Translations under genes and position numbers: made by a program | NCBI GenBank assembly: GCA_004194705.1 | Contig: SADC01000457.1 | Location: 1 to 64,000 of the forward strand | Source of the DNA: Ditylenchus dipsaci | Lineage: Eukaryota; Nematoda; Chromadorea; Rhabditida; Anguinidae | Length of the DNA: 64,000 bases | Direction: 5' to 3' | Notes under the pieces: model-generated | The model's input: only the letters and a program-made list of their open reading frames with translations | Database searches by the model: none | What the model was told of the DNA's origin: nothing | In this document: piece after piece, positions 45,500 to 62,943 of the stretch | Layout: each line of letters opens with the position of its first letter | Numbering within the stretch: the stretch's first letter is position 1

Positions 45500-48400
45500 T
45501 CACGAACAGCATTTCATTAAAAAAATTATATTTAGAAAGATGAATATGTGACATTGTTTTTTGCTGTTTTGATGTATTGATGTTCTATGCCATGTTTTAG
45601 TTGACTGAATCTAAAGAAAAATTAAATTACCGTTACATGCGTTAAAATCCAACCTACCAACAGTGCTCTTGTGGAAATGTTTTTGATAAACACTTCTATT
45701 TGACGTTTTGTGAACATTTTATGCAGCTCTCCAGCCACTGTGATTGACACGCCACCAGTCTCTTCCGACACTATTACACATAAAGACTTTTCGTGTTGAA
45801 TGCTGAAGGACCAAGCTGCTCGGTGCCGATTTCCTCGATTATTTTTAAGGAAAGAGCCCGCGATCACTTGGTATCGTACAAAAGACCAGTACCTTTGTTT
45901 TTCTATAAATAATTACCGTAGAACCTCTGATAGTAGCCTCTCTCTCTGGTTCAATACAATGTTTGTGGCATTGCGTTTCTGACCCAATTTCGAAGACTGC
46001 TTACCAATTTTTTGCCAGTGAGATGAGCTACCAAATGCGTGGTAATTTGCTTATGACAAGTTTTGAAAAAGTGGGTCTGAAACACAATGCCAAAAACATG
46101 ATTTTGAATCAGGGGGATGCTATTAGAGATGTTACGGTATTCCGAAAGCAATTTAAGAAAAAATGTGTTTATTGCAAGATTATACTCATTCCTTGAGCAC
46201 TTAAAAATATTTTTTTTTCGAAATTAGTGATTCCAATCGTGATCAATAGATCTTATTGCTAGACTTTGATTTAGTCAGCAAGCGAACCGAAAATAGTATA
46301 AATAGTTTACAAAATGCTTCAAATTGAATTGTGTCCTCGAAGATCTAAAATTTACCGTTTTTTTTTGTAAATGCTCTATTTGTCACCCATTCTAAAATAA
46401 TCCCTACCTTTCGAGTCTGTTGTATTTTTTTGTGAATTTGCCATGATCTTGAATTTTTTGGCCCTATTCCACAATGGGGGGGGGGGGGTTTCGCCTTGGT
46501 CTCCCCTGTTGTTTTTTATTGTGATTTTTTAGGCCAAACTCAGGCAAGTGTAAGCCAGCGTATGTTAGAATGGACTGTCAATATCGTCCTAACAAACGCT
46601 GGCCTACCCTTGCCTAAGCTTAAAAAGTCACAAAAACAACAGGGGGACCAAGGCAAAAAACCGCCCCCCCCATTTTGTGGAATAGAGCCAACTTTTTTGT
46701 GATAAAAGATAACCAAACGATTTCGATAATAGATAAATTTTCATTAAAAAACGAAAAAATCAGGAATGAAATTAATTAGTTTTTTTCCTAGCGGCCTAAA
46801 TTATTCGTACTGACGAGTATGCTCCTTTAAATTTAAACATACTTGGTTTTTTGTCGAGGTCCATAGGCAGTGAAAGATTGGCAGAATAAATGGTAGGATT
46901 AAATTGCTCGTCTAATCGAATGACGGCGGCCCCATCATGCAGTCTGTTAATAGGATTGGGCACATTGAATATTGTTTCAAGCAATTCGCCAGAAAATATT
47001 CCAGAAATCATCACAGCTTCAGCTTTTTGAGCACTTCATTGACAAGTCTGTCTGGCTCGCGGTAGAGCACAACCAAAGCCCCACTCTTTTGTTAGCCATA
47101 TTGAGGATTGCTTTTGAAAAGTCGTCCAGAAAATTTTCAAAAGAAGCATCCGGCTTTAAACCTTGAAAAAATATATTTCTGCTAATCTCTTCAAAATACA
47201 GTTGATGTTTTGAAAAAAATTTGAAAAAATAACACAATACGGTACTTTTATAGTTCCCCCATACTTGGATTTTTGAAAAGTTACCCAAAATCACCTGTCG
47301 AACTGATTTTTTCACGATAAGAGAAGTGTTTCTAAACACTTTCTGATTAATTTTTTCTGGCCTCTAAAAATTATTTACTTTCAAGGACTGAATTTTTATT
47401 AACAAAATTTTTTGAACAAACACTGTTTAGAAATGTTTTTTCATCGTATAGAGCATAAAAAAGTAGTTTGATGTGTGTTTTAGGTCACTTTTCGAAAACT
47501 TGGAAGAGGGCCAACGGCATTGTGCCACGGCATTTCGTCCAAAATTAGGTTCTCGCAAAAGTCAATTCGTCCAAAATGCAATTCGTTCAACTTTGTATTT
47601 CAGATCATAATTTTGAGGGGAAACACCGTTTTTGAGGGTTTGGAGCGGTTCGCGATATCAGACGTGGTATTCTGAGATTCTGACACGCTCAGTCGTTTTT
47701 TTCGCCAAATTAAGAAAACAGAAAAAACAGATTTGTGAAATGTTTGCTCTTGGCTGAGATATGAGGTCCGTAGGATGGGGGATTATTAGAGATTGAGATT
47801 TATTAGAGAGTGGGGATTAATAGAGAATATACGGTATACAGAAACAGTTATTTGGATTGCAGGAAGCCTTGTCCTCAGCAGTTTCAGACCGCGTAGTACT
47901 CAGGTGGAAGTCCAAAACACGTGGTATTTAAGTGACTGTATTTGGGGAGGAACACTCAGGTGAATGTATTTGGCACCCTAAATATGCGTACTCAGGCATA
48001 AGTCGATCAATAAACATTTTTCACGGACTTTTTTCTGAAATTTGAAGGAGTTTCAATTTGGACGAATTGATTTTCGGACTAATTGAATTTTGGACCAATT
48101 GAGTTTTGGATGAACTGCATTTTGGACGAATGGACTTTTGGACGAAATGCTATGGCACCCGACAGCATAAGTGCCGAATTTTTAATAGTCTGACTTTTAG
48201 TAAAAAAACATCAGGGTTATTCAGATTTGGTTGATTTCAGAAATTAGGAATACTCAATAATCTGATTTTTCATTTAAAGGGTCATGGTCACCTGTTTTCA
48301 ATTTGTCTCCGCCAATTCAAAATTTTTTTCTTATCATTGAACTTCTGTACGGATTTTTCAACTTGGTTTCTAACAAAACAAGGCCTAGAATTTAATTCTA

Positions 48401-49737
48401 GGTACAGTTTTGTTAGAAACCAAGTTGAAAAATCTGTACAGAAGTTGAATGATTCGGAAAAAATTTTTGAATTGGCGGGGACAAAATTCGTAACAGGTAA
48501 CAGACCATGCCCCTTTAAGATTTGTCTGTAAGCCCTAGCATAGAGTCACTTTGGCCACACTATAGAACGGATTATTTCAAGCCTCCAGCTAGCACAAAAT
48601 TAAATTTTTTCTAATGAGCAAACTATCTCAAAATTGTGATTCTCTTGATAGGCACGAAAAAACTTTAGTTTTAGAAAATTCACAAGCACTTTTGTTTTCG
48701 TCTTGCTTTGGTTTCCCAAAAACAAAAATTAAAAAGAAGTTCAAAAATTTTAAAAATTTCAACTTACGTTCGTATTTGCGTCTTTTATAGACTGTCTGAA
48801 GCTGTAAAATCACCATCAGCATGAATATCGCACAAATACCCAAATCAAGTAGTGGATGCCAGAGTGAAGAAAATAAATCGTTGATTGGAATGCAACAGCT
48901 GGAAAAGAACTAGTAGAAAAACATAATCTATAAACGAGCAGTTAAGTTTTATTAAATTAATACACATTTACATATGGCTATGACTAGTTTCCGCCTCCAG
49001 ATAAATGATTTCTGACACTAAACGAAATTTTCTGTCAAAATATCGTTTATAATCGGTTCTAAATCAATTAATTTCGGCACTAAATCTTGATTTCGGACGC
49101 TAAATATACTATTTTCGCCACTAAATCGGCACTGAGCTTTGCATTGTAACAGAAAAAATTGACTAAACTGTGGTTAACAGTTGAAATTCTTACTTTGTCT
49201 ACTTTTAGCATACTTTCTGAGCTGTGCTTTAGCTATAAAATTTTGCTGGTCTTTAGTGGTCGATGATGGTGGCAGGGCAGAAACTAATTACAGCTTTTGT
49301 TTATTTTACGATTGTTTATTTTATTTAAATTTTTAAAAATCCTACTGTACGTCGTGTTGATCTCTGCTGCAGTCAAGGTGTCCTGTTGACCAGGATGTTT
49401 TCAAATCACATGTCTGCCAGAACATGCATTTACCGCCTAACTTTTTGCATCCTCTATCTAATTTCGGTACGCAGCACCTAGATTTAAAGAATGAGTAAAA
49501 AAACATTACACAATCCTAACCAAACTAACATTTTTTTGGCTCTGGGCATCGATTCTTGATGATTATTGCGCTGTCCTCCCAATTACATTCACTGCTCATC
49601 AAGCATTGTCCACCAAGAAAACTACACGTTTCTCCAAGTTCATTAGGCGAAAATTCCAATTTTTTGATTGAAGCAGCTAAGACTACAGAAGTCAAAGGCA
49701 ATAGAAAAGTGAAGAGCAGTGCACTAAAATACATCAT
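45500..49737 (-). CDS. Receptor-like diadenylate cyclase: signal peptide, two defensin-like domains, TM, DisA_N domain
   Basis: Predicted c-di-AMP synthase (two ATP to c-di-AMP) on the cytoplasmic side of a membrane. Exons: 49737-49530 (signal peptide ALLFTFLLPLTSVVLA, domain 1), 49477-49346 (domain 2), 48898-48768 (CC, then TM about residues 130-150, LGICAIFMLMVILQL, then KRRK), 47161-46843 and 45833-45658 (cyclase), and a possible last exon 45610-45500. Both ectodomains space cysteines C-x6-C-x5-C-x12-C-x6/8-CC, a beta-defensin-like pattern. The cyclase has KRVG, GALVVLYREPD, FSGELLETIFN, NRLHDGAAVI (DGA near residue 234), NRHRAAWS (RHR 267-269) and CVIVSEETGG (from 287), the metal- and ATP-binding motifs of CdaA/DisA. 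The phase-1 intron from 48767 to 47162 joins TM and cyclase cleanly. Three one-base losses in A or G runs (near 49531, 47060, 47025) must be assumed. DisA_N is known mainly from bacteria and archaea; the exon structure argues for a transferred, domesticated domain. Confidence 0.82.
46470..46690. mobile_element. TTGGTCCCCCTGTTGTTTT-family MITE, copy 1
   Basis: CCTTGGTCTCCCCTGTTGTT near 46492 faces AACAACAGGGGGACCAAGG near 46643, with G and C runs outside and AAGCCAGCGTATGTTAG/CTAACAAACGCTGGCC inside. It lies in intron 4 of the cyclase gene. Other copies are at 56385-56625 and 63335-63530. Confidence 0.75.
47520..48165. mobile_element. Element with TTCGTCCAAAA inverted ends
   Basis: GGCATTTCGTCCAAAATTAG, TCAATTCGTCCAAAATG on the left face CATTTTGGACGAATGGAC and TTTGGACGAAATGC on the right. 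A partial ACCGTATT-family copy (to TATACGGTAT at 47836) is nested inside. It lies in intron 3 of the cyclase gene. Confidence 0.65.
48290..48520. mobile_element. Hairpin MITE, copy 2
   Basis: CCGCCAATTCAAAATTTTTT, GAACTTCTGTACGGATTTTT and CAACTTGGTTTCTAACAAAA are mirrored by TTTTGTTAGAAACCAAGTTG, AAAATCTGTACAGAAGTT and AAAATTTTTGAATTGGCGG. This is a stem of about 95 bp in intron 3 of the cyclase gene. Confidence 0.8.
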
Positions 49738-49854: not shown

Positions 49855-50320
49855 AGAGGTTAAAGCTGTTAAGGAGATAGTATTGACACAAAAGAATTAA
49901 TCCAAGATTTGTGCTTATATGAAATGTGGCTTTAGAGCCATGTTTTGTCGACAACTCGGTGTTGCGATCTCGAACTAACTGTGCAAAATTAAAAGTTGAT
50001 GAGCATCATCAATGTTAAAATCTATAAATTTCTTAAAAAAATGACCTGAAAATCCAAATGCAATAGAGCACTAATCCACCTTTCAATGGGGTTTTTCCCT
50101 TTCCCATTTCGATTTTTAGGGTACTTTTTTGAAGGAATCAATAAATTCTGATATTGATGATGCTCATCCAACTTTTGATTCTGCAAAAGTTTGTCTGAAA
50201 TCGCTAGACCGAGTTGAGGACAAAATATGGATCAAAAACTATATTTGAAAAAAAACACAAAACTTGGTATAATCCTTTCGTGTCAAGACTATATCCTCAA
50301 CAGCTTTCACCCCTCCTTTA
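49855..50320. mobile_element. Inverted-repeat element upstream of the cyclase gene
   Basis: AAAGGAGAGGTTAAAGCTGT TAAGGAGATAGTATTGACAC on the left pairs with GTGTCAAGACTATATCCTCA ACAGCTTTCACCCCTCCTTT on the right. A degraded copy lies at 24540-24710. No gene is present. Confidence 0.75.
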
Positions 50321-50522
50321 AAGGACCATACTTGTTGATGCAAATGAGAATTTGACAAATTCAAATGCGCGCGGGACACTTCTCTTTCGTCTCGCACTCT
50401 ACTCTTTGGAGTCGCTCGAAATAACGCAAAAGAGTACAGTGATAGACGAAAGAGAAGTGTCCCGCGCGCATTTGAATTTGTCAAATTCTCATTTGCATCA
50501 ACAAGTATGGTCCTTTAAGATT
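50318..50522. mobile_element. Near-perfect 74-bp-stem hairpin MITE
   Basis: TAAAGGACCATACTTGTTGA through GACACTTCTCTTTCGTC is exactly complemented by GACGAAAGAGAAGTGTC through TCAACAAGTATGGTCCTTTA. The loop is about 55 bp. The lack of divergence suggests a young insertion or active arm homogenisation. Confidence 0.85.
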
Positions 50523-51432
50523 TTTTATTAGCTATGACTACGTTATACCTCCATACAAATAAATTATGGCACTAAAATTTTTTTCCCATTTCTATTCGTC
50601 ACCAAAAAGTAAGTTTCTAGCACTAAATCAATTATTTTTAGCAAAAATTTTAATTTCTGGCCCTAGATGTTGGTTTTTGGTACTATTTTCAAGCAAAAAG
50701 TGCTGAGAAATGTTTTTTTGTCGTTTTTAATAACAAGAAAATTATTAGGGTCATTTTTGAAAAATGGAGGGGATATTATTCAAAAATAGAAATTCTGTTT
50801 TTATAGAAACTTAGAGCAGGATGTGTGTGATCTTTCAATCATTCGAAGCAAGTCGGTATGCCTGAAGAAAAAAAAGTTACAGCACTCCGTACCTGAATAA
50901 AACAGTAGCGCTAAAGTTTTTTCATGACGGAAATGTGGGCTCATAAAGTCGTTAATAATATTTTGACACGTCTTCCGTTGAAAAAACTAAATAATTTTTA
51001 TATCATTCCCACTCCCATTCGATGCAAAAATGTGTGAGCTGCTGAGCTTGGTGGATGGACCTAAAGTGGATTTCTTTACATACTTAAGCCAGTAAAAAAA
51101 CCACCAGGAACAGCGATTTTGAAAAGCTAAATTTACAGACTTGTTGAGCATAAAAAATGAGCCGGATGAACTGTCGTTACAGTCAGGGCTTCTCGTGTTA
51201 ACAAGTGATTTTCCATTAATTGTGAAAAAAGGGAGCAGGGAGCCCTTTTATGGGAACCAGACAAAATAGGTTTTAATATATATTGTCACGCAACAAAATA
51301 TGAAAAAAAACTCGTGCGACAAAATATATTTTTGCATATTTTATACGACAATGTATATTAAAATCTATTTTGTCCGGTTGCCCCCTTATATGAAGACTTT
51401 ATTTAGGCTTCACACACTTGTTCCGCTGAATT
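50523..51432. other. Intergenic stretch
   Basis: No gene is supported. A loose palindrome at about 51255-51385 pairs ACAAAATAGGTTTTAATATA with TATATTAAAATCTATTTTGT. Confidence 0.4.
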
Positions 51433-54487: not shown

Positions 54488-56318
54488 ATGACGAACACAT
54501 ATTACACTTATTTAATTGCTACACTGCTTGTATCAAACATCAGGGTTGCAGCAACATCAGACAACAGTAAACTTAGCCAAGGACAGTTTGATGTACGCTG
54601 CGCGTAAGCATTGTTGCTTGAAACAAAATGAAAGTTTAAAAAACGATGATTTTAGCTTTGTTGGAGGAATGTGCACGACAGAGAATATATGCGAAAATGG
54701 CTTTGGTGGGGACATCATTAAGAAACGCTGCAAAGTGGACGAGTAAGTCTACAGCGGGTTGAGTTTGAAGTATAAAGAGTGTGGGGTAGTGACGCAATAA
54801 ATCTTTAAAATTATACTGACTAGATATGAATTTTAATTTTTGGCGCTACTAGCGTATAACACAGAACTTTTTTTCAGAACTTTTTTTCTAAAAAAAAGGA
54901 GGCCAACCCCATTGTACACTATATGGAGAGTAACTCTGCCTAGTTTATACTGGGTGTACACTATAGTTTATGCTGGGTATATAGAGTTGTTATACAGAGT
55001 TGTATATAAAGTTGTTTAGCTTATACAGCGTCTTACATACTTAACGCACGGCATGCAACAAGTACATTGCAAAAGTTACAAAACTCATTGATGTCGAAAA
55101 AATACAAGAACGAAAAATTTCGATCAAAATTGGTCACTTTTTATGTGAAAATACAAAAAATTTGAACTCAATTTGTTTATCATTTTGACTGCACACTAAA
55201 TAGAATACCAATTTGACGATCGGAACTGGCCTCAAGTGTATACTATATGGAGGTGTACACCAGGGATTAGACCGGTTTAAAAAAAACATAAGCAGAAAAA
55301 CAAAACCCGGTCCCACCCTGGTGTACAGCATAGAGTGTAGACTGTATAGAGAGTCCCTTTGCCTTAATTTAGTCAAGGCCAATCAAATCTTCCTCAAGTG
55401 TACACTGTACAGAGGTGTACACTATATAGAGGCTTGACTGTATATAATAATATGTCTCGGCTGCGTATCGCATTCTATGCCTTAATGGAGGTACGAATTT
55501 GTTGACTATATACAGCTTGCTAATTTTGGCTCTAAAAACAGAATTAAAGTTACTGACTTCTCCTAGTTTGGGTCATTGCATAATAAACATACATCTCAGT
55601 CATTGAAAATTAATAACAAAATTTGAAATTCCAAATTTTTTTTATAAATAAAAGAAACATTTTTCAGGTGTTGTGTTCCTCAGCAAACCTATGCCTGCAA
55701 TGAAAGCAGCGGTGTTTGCAGATTCTCTTGCGATGAGCATGCGCCAGCAAAAATGGGTAGTGGACTCTGCGGTAGGAGTGAATTTTGTATGTTTATTTTA
55801 TTTTGCAATAATTTATTTTACAACAATTAAGCTAGCTCACGAAAAGTTACTGACAAATTCTTCTCAAATTCTTTGATATACAATTTCAAAATAGCAATGA
55901 AACTGTCCTTGTTCAGTTCGATTTCCAAATTTTTTCGGACCATGTAGAATTAGGTTTGGGCGATGTCTAATTCAGCCAGCTAATTTAGCGCTAATTTACC
56001 CTATTACCCTAAATTAGCGCTAAATTACCCGGCTAAATTAGCAATCCCCAACTCTAGATAGAATGCTTGTCAAAAAATTAAAGAAAAAAACACTGATGGT
56101 TTTTTCCTTTTTCACTCCGCTGGTAGACTTTTGTTAAAAGCCCAAAAAACAAATTTTCAATTTTTTTGTTATTTTTTATTTTCAATGTCCAATTGTATCA
56201 ATTCAGGTGCTGCGGTAAGAAAAAGATCTCTGTGTGGCGTCTTGTGCTTGAGTCTGTTGGCTGCCTTACCATTTTTATTTTGATGTTTCGTCTTATTTGG
56301 CTAAGATACTGGGGATGA
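54488..56318 (+). CDS. Defensin-like membrane protein, paralogue of the cyclase ectodomain
   Basis: Exons: 54488-54742, 55668-55786 and 56207-56318. A signal peptide (YLIATLLVSNIRVAA) starts at 54488. Domain 1 has GGMCTTENICENGFG and KKRCKVDECCVP, domain 2 ACNESSGVCRFSC ... GLCGRSEF, and exon 3 CCGKKK followed by a membrane segment (VGCLTIFILMFRLIWL) and a stop. Spacing C-x6-C, C-x12-C and the closing CC equal the cyclase gene's domains, and exon borders fall at the same CC. The signal peptide and domain 1 are one base out of frame with each other, and the 55786 donor is phase 1 where phase 2 is expected, so the copy is either mis-assembled or decaying. No cyclase exon follows. The first Cys of domain 1 is Phe. 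It could act as a decoy receptor or be a relic. Confidence 0.62.
54890..55440. mobile_element. Element of GTGTACACTATATGGAGG repeats (TA-type end), in intron
   Basis: GTACACTATATGGAG and its complement recur from 54910 to 55440. The right end TATAGAGGCTTGACTG is followed by TA, resembling the ends of the CAGTC family. It lies in intron 1 of the defensin-like gene. Confidence 0.55.
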
Positions 56319-57352: not shown

Positions 57353-60290
57353 TTACTTTCTGGTGAAATTGGCATCCTGTCGACCAAACCAGCCCTTACT
57401 TTGCCAAGTTGCAGGAATAGGGTCTCTTGGGTCGAGTTTGCCAATCCACAAGCCGTATTGACTGAAATCATGACGCTTCCAACTGACTTGATTTGCCCAA
57501 TAGTTTGCCTCGCAATTGATCCACAAATTGTAGCCTGTAGTATTGTGTAAATTTGTATGATACACTTGTTTTACTCCGAGGTTGTTTAAATCAAGGGTGG
57601 GGCTATCGTAATTATGGCATATTTCATTGGTATTCATGAGTAAATTTCAGGAGTAACAGCAGTCTTTCATTAATTTTATTATATTACCAGGATATAGAAA
57701 AAAATTTGTAGCATCAAGTCTCATATTTCAGATAATATAAAATGTTTTTAAAATTTCAAAGATTCAACTTAACTTAAACATAATAACAAATTATCGAAAT
57801 TATTCTAATAGGAGCTCCCTATTTTTTACTGAGATTTTGGAGACAAGGCCATCGTTAATTGACAATTTCAAGATTTTTAGGAGATCAACTTCGGGGTTTT
57901 CTATTAGTAATTACGGTACTATGATTCTGCTAAGTGAGGTCTATTTTTAGTCAAGAATGACAAACTCTCGTATACTGCATTATGCTTTTAATATCGCTAC
58001 CGAGATAAAATAAATAACATGCCTTTGAAATGGTTGAGAAAATCAAACAAATAGTCTGCGCTTTGATCAGGTGTAGGTTTATCGTGTTTTTCCATGTTGT
58101 CAGGAGCATAAGGTGCAATTGTGATTGCCAACATGTCATTGTCCTTGTCAAAACCAACATCTTTCAATGCTCTGCCAACATTGTCCACTTGTTTTTGAAC
58201 GTTTGCTAAGGCATAGAACCGATGGTTGGCTGCCACTAAGACGCCATTTTTCTTAGCATTCATCCAGTTTTCTATGAACAATGGGTCACGGTCGAATACA
58301 CCAGTACTAGCACATATTATGGCTGCATCTATGCCAAAATTTTTAGCCTTTTGCCAGTCAATTTCAAATTGGCGGTCAGACACATCAACGCCTTGCACAA
58401 TTGATTCTTCGTTGTTTTTAGCTGTAAGATTTTATGATTTAATTTTTTTTATAAGAATATTCGACCCTACTTGGATATACCCCTCCCGAATCAACTTTTT
58501 TTAAAGTGTTTCCAAACACTTTAAAATATTAACTTAAAAAAGCATCAGGAGTTCGAAAAAGGCATAATTTTTGAGTTTTGGTACATGAAAAATTGAGTTT
58601 TGAGCTTTTTCAAATTTCGACTTTTTACCTGTTTTACCATGTTCTTCAACATGGGGCTTGGCAAAAAGAGCCTCTAAATACACATACCTTAGACACAATC
58701 ACTCGAAAGCGACTCTGGATGCATGAAAGATGTATGCATACCAGAGTTTATTTATGCGGTAGGCCCCAGTATTCAAAACAATGTTCAACATCTTCCTTTT
58801 GTTCAAATTGGCACCTTTTTGGTTCATTTCCACCCCAATACAGCCTTAAAACCCTTGAAAATGGTCAGAAGGGGTACTTTTTGGTGGTCCGAAAACTCAA
58901 TTTTTTACCGACCAGAACTCAAAATAATGCTTTTTTTAACTACTGAGGCTATTTTAGGTCGACATAAGGTGTTTGGAAACACTTTTAAAAAAAATTGATT
59001 TGGGAGGGTGTTACATATAGGTAAAATTACGACTATTTCTATAAGATCTACACGTGTAGCGCAGTGGGTTAGCTTCCCACTTTTTACGTTACAACAATTG
59101 GCGCAGTCGGCAGGATTCGAACCTACGCGGACAAAGCCCAATTGATTTCCAGTCAATCCCCGTCAATTTTACGTTACAACAATTGGCGCAGTCGCAAGTT
59201 CGATCCCGCAAGGGTCCCGGACATTTAAAATATAATTCAAATTCCTCCATTTCTTCCTAATTTTGGACCCTCCATTCGACGTTTCAATAAGTGGTTGTAT
59301 TACAATACAACGGAGGAAGTAGGTGGCGGTACCCCACTGAAAAAAAATCGATCCGATTATTCCTAATTTCATGGCCATGTCATTTATTTGCATACACCTA
59401 CAAGAGGTTTTGACATGGGAGACTCACCTTGCGGGGTGTTTACTCTGGTTCCTAGTAGCCCTGCGAACGGTTAACTATAAGTCTATCGATATATAAATTC
59501 TTACTTAAAAGGGGAGATGTTACATATAGGTAAAAGTACGACTATTTCTATAAGTTCTACACGTGTAGCGCAGTGGGTTAGCTTCCAACTTTTTACGTTA
59601 CAACAGAGGGTATATCCAAGTAGCGCCAAATATTCAGTCTACTTATTTTATCACAGTTTTCCGGATTTTAAAATTGCAATTTTTTCTTCGAATTTTAAGT
59701 AGTTGTTTTAACCCGATTTCGATTCGTAAAAATGAATTTTGACTGCAGTTTCAACCCGCGACAATAAGGTTTCCGAATATCGCATGAAAAGATTCAAATG
59801 CTCTGGTATAGAGATACAAACATTAAATGATAAATTCTTGTGTTATAGATGTATTAAGATATAGGGGTATATGGAAGATCCGTCCAAAAGAGCTTCTTTT
59901 TCATATAAACATACTTTTTTGTAAATCATTCTTCTGCTCTTCAAATTTTTTGATTTTTCCATCTGAAACGGTCTTTGGTTTACCTAATATCGCAGCTGCC
60001 CAAATTGGAAAAAATTGAAAAGGATGAAAATAAAAGAAAATAAATTATTTCTTTGAGTAAAATACAATAAAGTCATACTAACTTTTTTTCTTATTTACAA
60101 CAAGCTTCTACTCCCAAAATGAAAAAGAAAAAAAGCTTTATATCTCCACGAGCTTATATCGATACTTAGATAAAGACGTTGAATATTTCAAAACTTACAT
60201 TTCATGGGTTTGGCTAATTTGCACAGTTGTTTGAAAATAGAAGGCCTTTGAACTGCATCACAGGGGCACTCATATGAATTGCTTTCTGGT
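57353..60290 (-). CDS. GH25 lysozyme-like protein, probable pseudoenzyme
   Basis: GH25 muramidases cut bacterial peptidoglycan. Exons joining in phase: 60290-60199 (YECPCDAVQRPSIF, Cys-rich lead), 58421-58023 (VQGVDVSDRQFEIDW, the family's N-terminal block with its Asp; then ASTGVF, DPLFIENW, LVAANHRFYAL) and 57534-57353 (NLWINCEANYW, QYGLWIG, PATWQSKGWFG, stop). A signal-peptide exon upstream of 60290 was not found. The intron between the last two exons uses a GC donor (AAAG/GCATGT), which gives an ungapped protein. Where the catalytic DxE normally lies, the sequence is NDMLAITIAPY with no acidic pair, and the end WFGRQDANF is short of the usual WQY...D segment. The fold is probably kept but activity is doubtful. 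Intron 1 holds MITEs and tRNA-like pieces. Confidence 0.8.
58480..59000. mobile_element. Fold-back MITE (AAAGTGTTTCCAAACAC), full copy
   Basis: TTTAAAGTGTTTCCAAACAC at 58500 faces GTGTTTGGAAACACTTTTAA at 58968. AAAATTGAGTTTTGAG pairs with CTCAATTTTTTACC near 58600 and 58895. Halves of this element occur at 37690-37925 and 19790-19925. It is in intron 1 of the GH25 gene. Confidence 0.75.
59045..59240. repeat. Chimeric tRNA-like repeat
   Basis: The plus strand has an A-box-like GTGTAGCGCAGTGGGTTAGC at 59055 and a B-box-like AGTTCGATCCCGCAAGGG near 59198. Between them a 28-base sequence (TTTTACGTTACAACAATTGG CGCAGTCG) stands twice, bracketing a tRNA-Ser fragment in the opposite direction. The A-box part recurs at 59555-59605. 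This looks like a tRNA-derived SINE disrupted by a second tRNA piece. Confidence 0.55.
59102..59163 (-). pseudogene. tRNA-Ser 3' fragment (anticodon loop onward)
   Basis: The minus strand reads GATTGACTGGAAATCAAT (anticodon stem-loop, anticodon GGA), then a Ser-type long variable arm (GGGCTTTGTCC), GTAGGTTCGAATCCTGC (T-arm) and CGACTGCG (acceptor). The 5' half with the D-arm is missing, so it is a fragment. Confidence 0.65.
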
Positions 60291-61831: not shown

Positions 61832-62584
61832 TTTTTAGCAATAAAATTTATTCCCCGAAAATATTCCAAACATATGGTTTTGTAGCTCTTTCCATCCTCT
61901 TTCGAATGGTATATAAAGTTTCATTAGAATATTTTATAAAAGCCATTATTTGGTTACAAACATATGTGAGGTCATTTTAGGATGTTGATAGGCATTTTTA
62001 TCACTTTAGCTGATCAAAATTTTAATTAAAAGTTCAAGGCTACAGCACAATAAAAGCACCATGTTGTAGCGCAGTTCAAGAGCTACAAAAACCACTTTAC
62101 AGAGTAGCTTTTAAAAATCTGAGTGTTGAGATATGGCTTTTTTGAAAAAAAAACAATTTCTTGAAAAATAACCAAAATCAAATTTTATCCAAATTTTTTA
62201 GATTTCAGTCATTTTCAAGAAATTGATTTTTTTGAAAAAGCCATATCTCAACACTCAGATTTTTAAAAGCTACTCTGTAAAGTGGTTTTTGTAGCTCTTG
62301 AACTGCGCTACAACATGGTGCTTTTATTGTGCTGTAGCCTTGAACTTTTAATTAAAATTTTGATCAGCTAAAGTGATAAAAATGCCTATCAACATCCTAA
62401 AATGACCTCACATATGTTTGTAACCAAATAATGGCTTTTATAAAATATTCTAATGAAACTTTATATACCATTCGAAAGAGGATGGAAAGAGCTACAAAAC
62501 CATATGTTTGGAATATTTTCGGGGAATAAATTTTATTGCTAAAAATTAGTTCAAAGTCCATTCCGAACTTTATGGTCACCAGTT
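61792..62584. repeat. Large near-perfect palindrome that copies the end of a GH25 exon
   Basis: AACTGGTGACCATAAAGTTC at 61792 is repeated as GAACTTTATGGTCACCAGTT ending at 62584. The two ~395-bp arms match almost base for base, folding near 62190. The right arm includes the last 11 codons and stop of the GH25 exon at 62551-62856. The left arm holds the same codons on the plus strand. Confidence 0.88.
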
Positions 62585-62856
62585 ATATCAACCAAACAGA
62601 ATTTGTCTCTCTGTGCAAAATGACAAACATCGTGAAGTTCATGCTTCTTAGTATACTGCCAACCAAACCATCCCTTTCTGTTCCAAGTTTGTGGCACAAC
62701 AGGAAGCCCATAATATTGTGAAATCCATAAGCCATAGTTGCCAAATGGGTGCTTTGTAAAACTAATTTGACGAGTCCATACCTCAGGCTTGCAGTATATC
62801 CATATATTGGCAAAATCAGCCAAATTTCTAAGGAATTCAAATAAATTGTCAGCCAT
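62551..62856 (-). CDS. GH25 lysozyme-like C-terminal exon, second copy
   Basis: A 306-base exon after TTTCAG. It reads ADNLFEFLRNLADF, NIWIYCKPEVWTRQ, NYGLWISQYYG, PQTWNRKGWFGWQYT and ends VDITGDHKVRNGL. It aligns with the last exons of the GH25 gene at 57353-60290 but keeps WFGWQYT and a terminal VD segment, closer to the family norm. The initial Met is in mid-domain, so it is not a start codon. The upstream exons, with the catalytic half, must lie beyond 62900 or outside the window; repeats fill the rest of the minus strand here. Confidence 0.7.
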   Translation of the reverse strand: MADNLFEFLRNLADFANIWIYCKPEVWTRQISFTKHPFGNYGLWISQYYGLPVVPQTWNRKGWFGWQYTKKHELHDVCHFAQRDKFCLVDITGDHKVRNGL

Positions 62857-62943
62857 CTGAAATATGCAAGAAGCGTCAATTTTTTTTATAAACATGATAA
62901 AGTCACATTAAAACGATGTTTTTTCCATGGATGTCAAAACTAG

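What the first reader, a model, noticed from the sequence alone, without database searches (positions are those of the whole stretch)
45658..49737. Animal gene encoding a membrane receptor-like diadenylate cyclase
In-phase exons join a signal peptide, two beta-defensin-like domains and a single TM to a DisA_N domain that keeps DGA, RHR and SEETG. c-di-AMP synthesis is known from bacteria and archaea; I know of no animal receptor with this domain. The TM followed by KRRK places the cyclase in the cytosol, so extracellular recognition could be coupled to c-di-AMP, a ligand of STING-type sensors. Exons and motifs are seen; activity and role are inferred.
Basis: partly seen in the sequence, partly recalled or inferred. 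Interest (0 to 1): 0.97.

Follow-up and report, generated by a model that had tools for sequence, protein, structure and literature searches.

The report
Nematode membrane gene with bacterial cyclase
A plant-parasitic worm carries a bacterial-type domain for making the signal molecule c-di-AMP, joined to what looks like a cell-surface protein; animals are not thought to make this molecule, so a working copy would be a surprise, but activity is unproven and this draft copy has reading-frame breaks.

Summary
The diadenylate cyclase (DAC, PF02457) domain is real. The window is from the draft genome of the stem nematode Ditylenchus dipsaci, and the locus already has an automatic UniRef entry (P0001, A0A915EM99). 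Exons give a signal peptide, two six-cysteine domains, one TM and a DAC that keeps DGA, RHR and SEETG. 'In-phase' is wrong as written: the first junction is out of phase and the cyclase exon breaks frame twice, each time at a homopolymer run. The PacBio assembly shows similar breaks in HSP70 genes, so assembly error is likelier than decay, but unproven. New here: (1) the DAC is CdaA-like, not DisA-like, and groups with Chlamydiae (100/100; a place just outside them is not rejected); (2) it is one of 7 DAC matches in the genome and, by eye, the only one with all three motifs; (3) a gene 5 kb away encodes the same signal-Cys-Cys-TM protein without a cyclase, so a bacterial cyclase was joined to a local membrane-protein gene. 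Most likely a single-pass membrane protein with a cytosolic DAC. Catalysis, ligand and any STING link are inferred or untested.

The parts
49530..49737 (-). E1: start codon, signal-peptide-like stretch, first Cys domain up to the CC
   Evidence: next junction out of phase by one base at a homopolymer run
49346..49477 (-). E2: CC of domain 1 and second Cys domain
   Evidence: public model P0001 starts inside this exon
48768..48898 (-). E3: CC of domain 2, single TM stretch, KRRK
   Evidence: present in P0001
46843..47161 (-). E4: N-terminal part of the DAC with HDGA; two frame breaks between about 47090 and 47020
45658..45833 (-). E5: C-terminal part of the DAC with NRHRAA and SEETG; P0001 begins it near 45902
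45500..45610 (-). E6: probable last exon as in P0001, hydrophobic tail and stop
54488..56318 (+). Neighbouring paralogue of E1-E3: signal-peptide-like start, two Cys domains, TM, stop; no cyclase (exons 54488-54603, 54656-54742, from 55668, 56207-56318; the end of the third was not settled)

Best explanation
A nuclear gene of the nematode Ditylenchus dipsaci in which a CdaA-like diadenylate cyclase domain, taken up from Chlamydiae or a near relative and multiplied in the genome, was joined behind the TM of a local membrane-protein gene (signal peptide, two six-cysteine domains, TM). Shown: the domain, its motifs, the paralogue without cyclase, the DAC family, the nearest relatives. Inferred: the product is a single-pass membrane protein with the Cys domains outside and the cyclase in the cytosol; pairing of two chains, perhaps on binding an outside ligand, brings two DAC domains face to face and makes c-di-AMP inside the cell. 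Paralogues with lost motifs may be partners or sensors. My weights: DAC domain of bacterial origin in the worm genome 0.97; fusion gene real as drawn 0.85; intact and expressed in the animal 0.65; catalytically active 0.45; signal-driven receptor cyclase 0.3. The confidence below is for an active membrane-bound cyclase or close to it.
For: DAC 59.1 bits; all three motifs kept; 17 of 22 highly conserved columns kept against 4 of 54 variable ones, counted on P0001; public gene model crosses E2-E6, from an annotation that used RNA-seq hints according to the genome paper; paralogue without cyclase with similar intron positions, alignment score 127 against 47.2 +/- 10.4 in shuffles with Cys fixed, 0 of 1000 as high; 7 DAC matches over cut-off on five contigs; Chlamydiae nearest; C204 DAC model pLDDT 88.7, pTM 0.85; HSP70 control shows many frame breaks in this assembly.
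Against: Three frame faults in the assembled copy; no reads were available to me. Most paralogues have lost motif residues. No PgpH-type phosphodiesterase domain in the genome. AU tests do not reject nematode copies outside Chlamydiae (p 0.395, 0.235, 0.41), and the nematode branches are long. P0001 folds only moderately (pLDDT 67.6, pTM 0.55). Activity, expression level and topology untested.
Confidence: 0.5

Rival explanations
1. Decaying copy: a fusion gene that once worked and is now a pseudogene; the frame breaks are real mutations.
For: One out-of-phase junction and two frame breaks; other DAC copies show breaks too (C204 after SEQ, C910a around RHR).
Against: All three faults lie at homopolymer runs in a PacBio assembly for which no short-read polishing is mentioned; 13 similar breaks among 45 of 93 HSP70 rows, though part of those copies may be pseudogenes; motifs, splice borders and conserved columns are kept.
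Confidence: 0.2
2. Pseudo-cyclase: the protein is made but binds ATP or c-di-AMP, or serves as a scaffold, without making c-di-AMP.
For: Most of the 7 copies have lost DGA, RHR or SEETG residues, yet the two C910 copies differ with dN/dS 0.34 (NG86) and 0.31 (YN00) over 118 codons, so motif-poor copies were constrained. A shorter stretch of 45 codons gives 0.35 (NG86) and 0.67 (YN00).
Against: The window copy keeps all three motifs.
Confidence: 0.17
3. Osmotic or drying-stress regulator rather than a receptor: c-di-AMP works here as in bacteria on salt and water balance.
For: c-di-AMP is linked to osmotic homeostasis in bacteria and implicated in it in an archaeon (passages); survival of drying by this worm is recalled, not checked.
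Against: No c-di-AMP receptor was sought apart from STING; outer Cys domains and GH25 neighbours suggest defence rather (inference).
Confidence: 0.05
4. Contaminant or chimeric contig.
For: Draft assembly merged from two assemblies and scaffolded.
Against: DAC exons have introns and sit with an outer-half paralogue 5 kb away; seven DAC matches on five contigs; three public D. dipsaci DAC models.
Confidence: 0.03

Closest known systems
CdaA/DacA membrane diadenylate cyclase (TIGR00159), chlamydial members such as P0041, P0055, P0066, P0108
   Same: DAC with DGA, RHR, SEETG; membrane anchor before the DAC; sequence signatures shared with Chlamydiae
   Different: In an animal; single TM with outer Cys domains and signal peptide instead of the CdaA_N membrane domain, which was not found in the genome over its cut-off (best 17.6 of 23.8 bits, elsewhere); scores below the CdaA cut-off
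DisA (DNA integrity scanning diadenylate cyclase)
   Same: Same catalytic domain type
   Different: The C204 copy scores 14.1 bits and the C275 copy 20.1 bits with the DisA model, and P0001 is not listed for it; DisA PDB chains match the mixed profile far more weakly than CdaA
Receptor guanylate cyclases of animals (recalled)
   Same: Would work alike: outer domain, one TM, cytosolic nucleotide cyclase
   Different: Another cyclase domain; not members
cGAS-like receptors and STING
   Same: Animal cyclic dinucleotide signalling
   Different: Other enzyme fold: a review passage says GGDEF, SMODS and DAC synthetases share no structural similarity (PMC7288161)

Membership tests
DAC domain (PF02457) | Profile score over the curated cut-off | tested here: met
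   59.1 bits against 27 with X at breaks; 47.0 for P0001
DAC domain (PF02457) | DGA, RHR and SEETG motifs | tested here: met
   All in the window copy, by eye; 1 of 7 copies, the first motif of C151 not located
DAC domain (PF02457) | Makes c-di-AMP | not testable with these tools
   No experiment
CdaA (TIGR00159) | Equivalog cut-off of 188.8 bits | tested here: not met
   P0001 60.2, P0014 57.5, P0015 44.1, C204 75.2, C275 39.6 bits; CdaA-like, not filed as CdaA
CdaA (TIGR00159) | CdaA_N membrane domain (PF19293) | tested here: not met
   No match over cut-off in the genome; controls rang in 6 of 14
Beta-defensin-like domains | Six-cysteine spacing | tested here: met
   C-x6-C-x5-C-x12-C-x5..8-CC twice in the window gene; similar spacing in the neighbour
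Beta-defensin-like domains | Match to a known defensin family or structure | tested here: not met
   No Pfam family at E<=1; no PDB sequence at E<=10
Receptor cyclase (type I membrane enzyme) | Signal peptide, one TM, cytosolic catalytic domain | tested here: inconclusive
   Hydropathy and KRRK agree; no topology predictor or experiment; E6 adds a second hydrophobic stretch
STING pathway partner | A STING-type receptor in the genome | tested here: inconclusive
   PF15009 gave no match, but no control rang

The most novel reading that the evidence does not exclude
The first animal diadenylate cyclase: a transmembrane receptor-like enzyme that makes c-di-AMP inside a nematode cell, built by joining a chlamydial-type DAC to a native Cys-domain membrane protein, with pseudo-cyclase paralogues as partners or sensors, so that an animal has taken a bacterial second messenger into its own signalling.
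Probability: 0.35. Interest if true: 0.96.

Novelty: new variant of a known kind. Interest (0 to 1): 0.86.

Why it matters
Passages of two papers say that eukaryotic cells are not known to use c-di-AMP as a second messenger (PMC6741144) or are believed to lack it (PMC8646023), although host cells sense c-di-AMP from bacteria. A worm gene family with one member that keeps the catalytic motifs, joined to a membrane-protein gene whose cyclase-free sister lies 5 kb away, makes that rule directly testable. It would also be a clear case of how a bacterial enzyme is wired into an animal membrane protein.

Tried and rejected
STING_LBD search: no match, no control rang, so no conclusion. PgpH-type domain: none, controls rang in 5 of 14. 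DHHA1: two C-terminal pieces on C1216 only, which I take for a tRNA synthetase (recalled, not tested). A 40-base intron in E4 as in P0001: rejected, because the piece is DAC-like and its removal costs 12 bits. DisA as the family: rejected. Nematode copies as one clade: not in the best tree, not rejected (p-AU 0.254). Hits of the outer half at C1345 (E 3.59) and of the neighbour's Cys domains at C1296 (E 1.72): taken for chance; one search also failed to list the neighbour, so such searches miss relatives. Between the trees I dropped 12 of 80 rows, three of them nematode copies (C275, C910a, C910b), most for long branches or gaps. The five signature patterns were chosen after seeing the alignment.

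Full report
Origin of the window. The window is the first 64 kb of contig C456 of an assembly of 226,978,389 bases in 1359 contigs. The best protein match to the gene model is UniRef A0A915EM99 of Ditylenchus dipsaci (P0001). Its residues are those of this locus apart from X positions and two stretches explained below. The published D. dipsaci draft has 227,234,012 bases in 1,394 scaffolds, near but not equal to these figures; PacBio RSII reads at 42x, CANU assembly, no short-read polishing mentioned; 537 complete, 133 fragmented and 312 missing of 982 BUSCO genes (PMC6929663, whole text). The species is a nematode.

The gene. On the minus strand E1 (49737-49530), E2 (49477-49346), E3 (48898-48768), E4 (47161-46843), E5 (45833-45658) and probably E6 (45610-45500) have AG/GT borders where expected. 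They encode a signal-peptide-like start, two domains with spacing C-x6-C-x5-C-x12-C-x5..8-CC, one TM stretch followed by KRRK, and a DAC domain. With X at the breaks the DAC scores 59.1 bits in Pfam, E 3.9e-16.

Frame faults. E1/E2 is out of phase by one base and E4 changes frame twice between about 47090 and 47020. All three lie at homopolymer runs. The public model P0001 starts within E2 and leaves out 40 bases of E4. That piece is DAC-like: the score is 47.0 bits without it. P0001 also begins E5 earlier, near 45902; residues 164-188 there have pLDDT under 50. As a control I searched HSP70: 93 matches. Of 45 rows that I gave to a script, 13 neighbouring pairs continue the profile in another frame with a gap under 36 bases, the shortest intron of the published annotation. 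So frame breaks are common in this assembly even in a conserved family. Some of those copies may be pseudogenes, so the control shows that the fault is common, not that it explains this gene.

A neighbour shows what the outer half is. On the plus strand at 54488-56318 lies a gene with a signal-peptide-like start, two Cys domains, a TM and then a stop. It has an intron before each CC, as in E1-E3, and one extra intron of 52 bases; the donor of its third exon was not settled. Its pieces align with E1-E3 at score 127 against 47.2 +/- 10.4 for shuffles with Cys fixed, 0 of 1000 as high; piece by piece, domain 1 reaches 2, domain 2 0 and the TM exon 10 of 1000. It has no cyclase. The simplest account is that a local membrane-protein gene was duplicated and one copy gained a DAC behind its TM. 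GH25-type exons lie further along (58000-58431, 44.2 bits; 62554-62907, 26.9 bits, just under the cut-off of 27).

The DAC family in the genome. PF02457 gives 7 matches, all over the cut-off, on five contigs: C204, C275 (two), C910 (two), C151 and the window. C204 holds a further weak one at 100541-100978, 17.9 bits, below the cut-off. P0015 at C910 begins with what looks by eye like a degenerate DAC before its DAC. By eye only the window copy keeps DGA, RHR and SEETG together: C204 has DGA, RHR and SEQ before a frame break; the C275 copies have DGA, RHY, SEEK and DGA, GHR, SETN; the C910 copies DLA or DLS, RHR (in one of them in another frame) and SHG; C151 RHT and SEEK, its first motif not located. 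The two C910 copies differ with dN/dS 0.34 (NG86) and 0.31 (YN00) over 118 codons; a second stretch of 45 codons gives 0.35 and 0.67. The window copy, counted on P0001, keeps 17 of 22 columns that are 90% conserved in 69 bacterial rows and 4 of 54 variable ones; C204 20 of 23 and 14 of 64; C275 15 of 23; C910b 13 of 23; C910a 10 of 16.

Where the domain comes from. Of five nematode proteins scanned against NCBIfam four score best with CdaA (TIGR00159), below its cut-off; the C275 copy scores slightly better with CdaS (40.4 against 39.6 bits). Among the 120 listed of 749 hits to a nematode profile, six bear chlamydial names, from 1.2e-27 to 1e-25 or better (P0040, P0041, P0055, P0060, P0066, P0108); most carry no name. 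In a quick tree of 80 rows the nearest bacterial rows of the 4 nematode copies shown are chlamydial or unnamed rows of that group; the fifth copy was not shown. A careful tree of 68 rows joins 2 nematode copies with 11 rows, 7 of them named Chlamydiae by their source, at 100/100 against 55 others; its bootstrap had not settled and both nematode branches are long. AU tests do not reject Chlamydiae without the nematode copies (p 0.395), nor the window copy or C204 outside (0.235, 0.41). So the donor is chlamydial or a near relative. Signatures agree: FSxELLETIF in 7 of 11 chlamydial against 0 of 64 other rows, also in the window copy; SMG[TSA]RHR in 8 of 11 against 0 of 64, also in C204.

Structure. 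The C204 DAC, with 25 relatives in the alignment, folds at mean pLDDT 88.7, pTM 0.85; P0001 at 67.6 and 0.55. A profile of four nematode and three bacterial sequences matches 21 PDB sequences, CdaA-type chains best; the bacterial rows make this less than independent.

Mechanism. [quoted passage not shown] A single TM with outer Cys domains and an inner DAC would suit pairing driven from outside; this is inference. Paralogues with lost motifs could be partners, sensors or remnants. A link to STING is not supported: the search could not have shown it.

Literature. Ten searches (open-licence PMC only) listed no paper whose title or shown abstract is about a diadenylate cyclase in a nematode or other animal. 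Seen: PMC6929663 whole; passages of PMC6741144, PMC8646023, PMC7288161 and PMC10732462; the rest as listings. The UniRef name 'DAC domain-containing protein' is automatic, so the domain call is already public; the fusion, the family and the origin are not described in what I saw.

Noticed in passing
window 54488-56318 (+): Paralogue of the outer half (signal peptide, two Cys domains, TM, stop) without cyclase.
   Followed up: yes
window 57356-58431 (-) and 62554-62907 (-): GH25 lysozyme-type exons near the Cys-domain genes; 57356-57646 looks by eye like a second exon of the first.
   Followed up: partly
G000 C910:146794-151188 and C204:97234-100978: DAC-like domains that seem to stand in tandem, the first degenerate.
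   Followed up: partly
G000 HSP70 loci on C170, C1177, C1185, C126, C312, C281, C863, C1291: Frame breaks in conserved HSP70 genes; single-gene readings from this assembly need care.
   Followed up: yes
G000 C275:56978-57763 (+): Open frame of 262 aa just downstream of a DAC copy, no Pfam match at E<=1.
   Followed up: no
window 50239-50531: The two strands read almost the same peptide here, so this is an inverted repeat, upstream of the gene.
   Followed up: no
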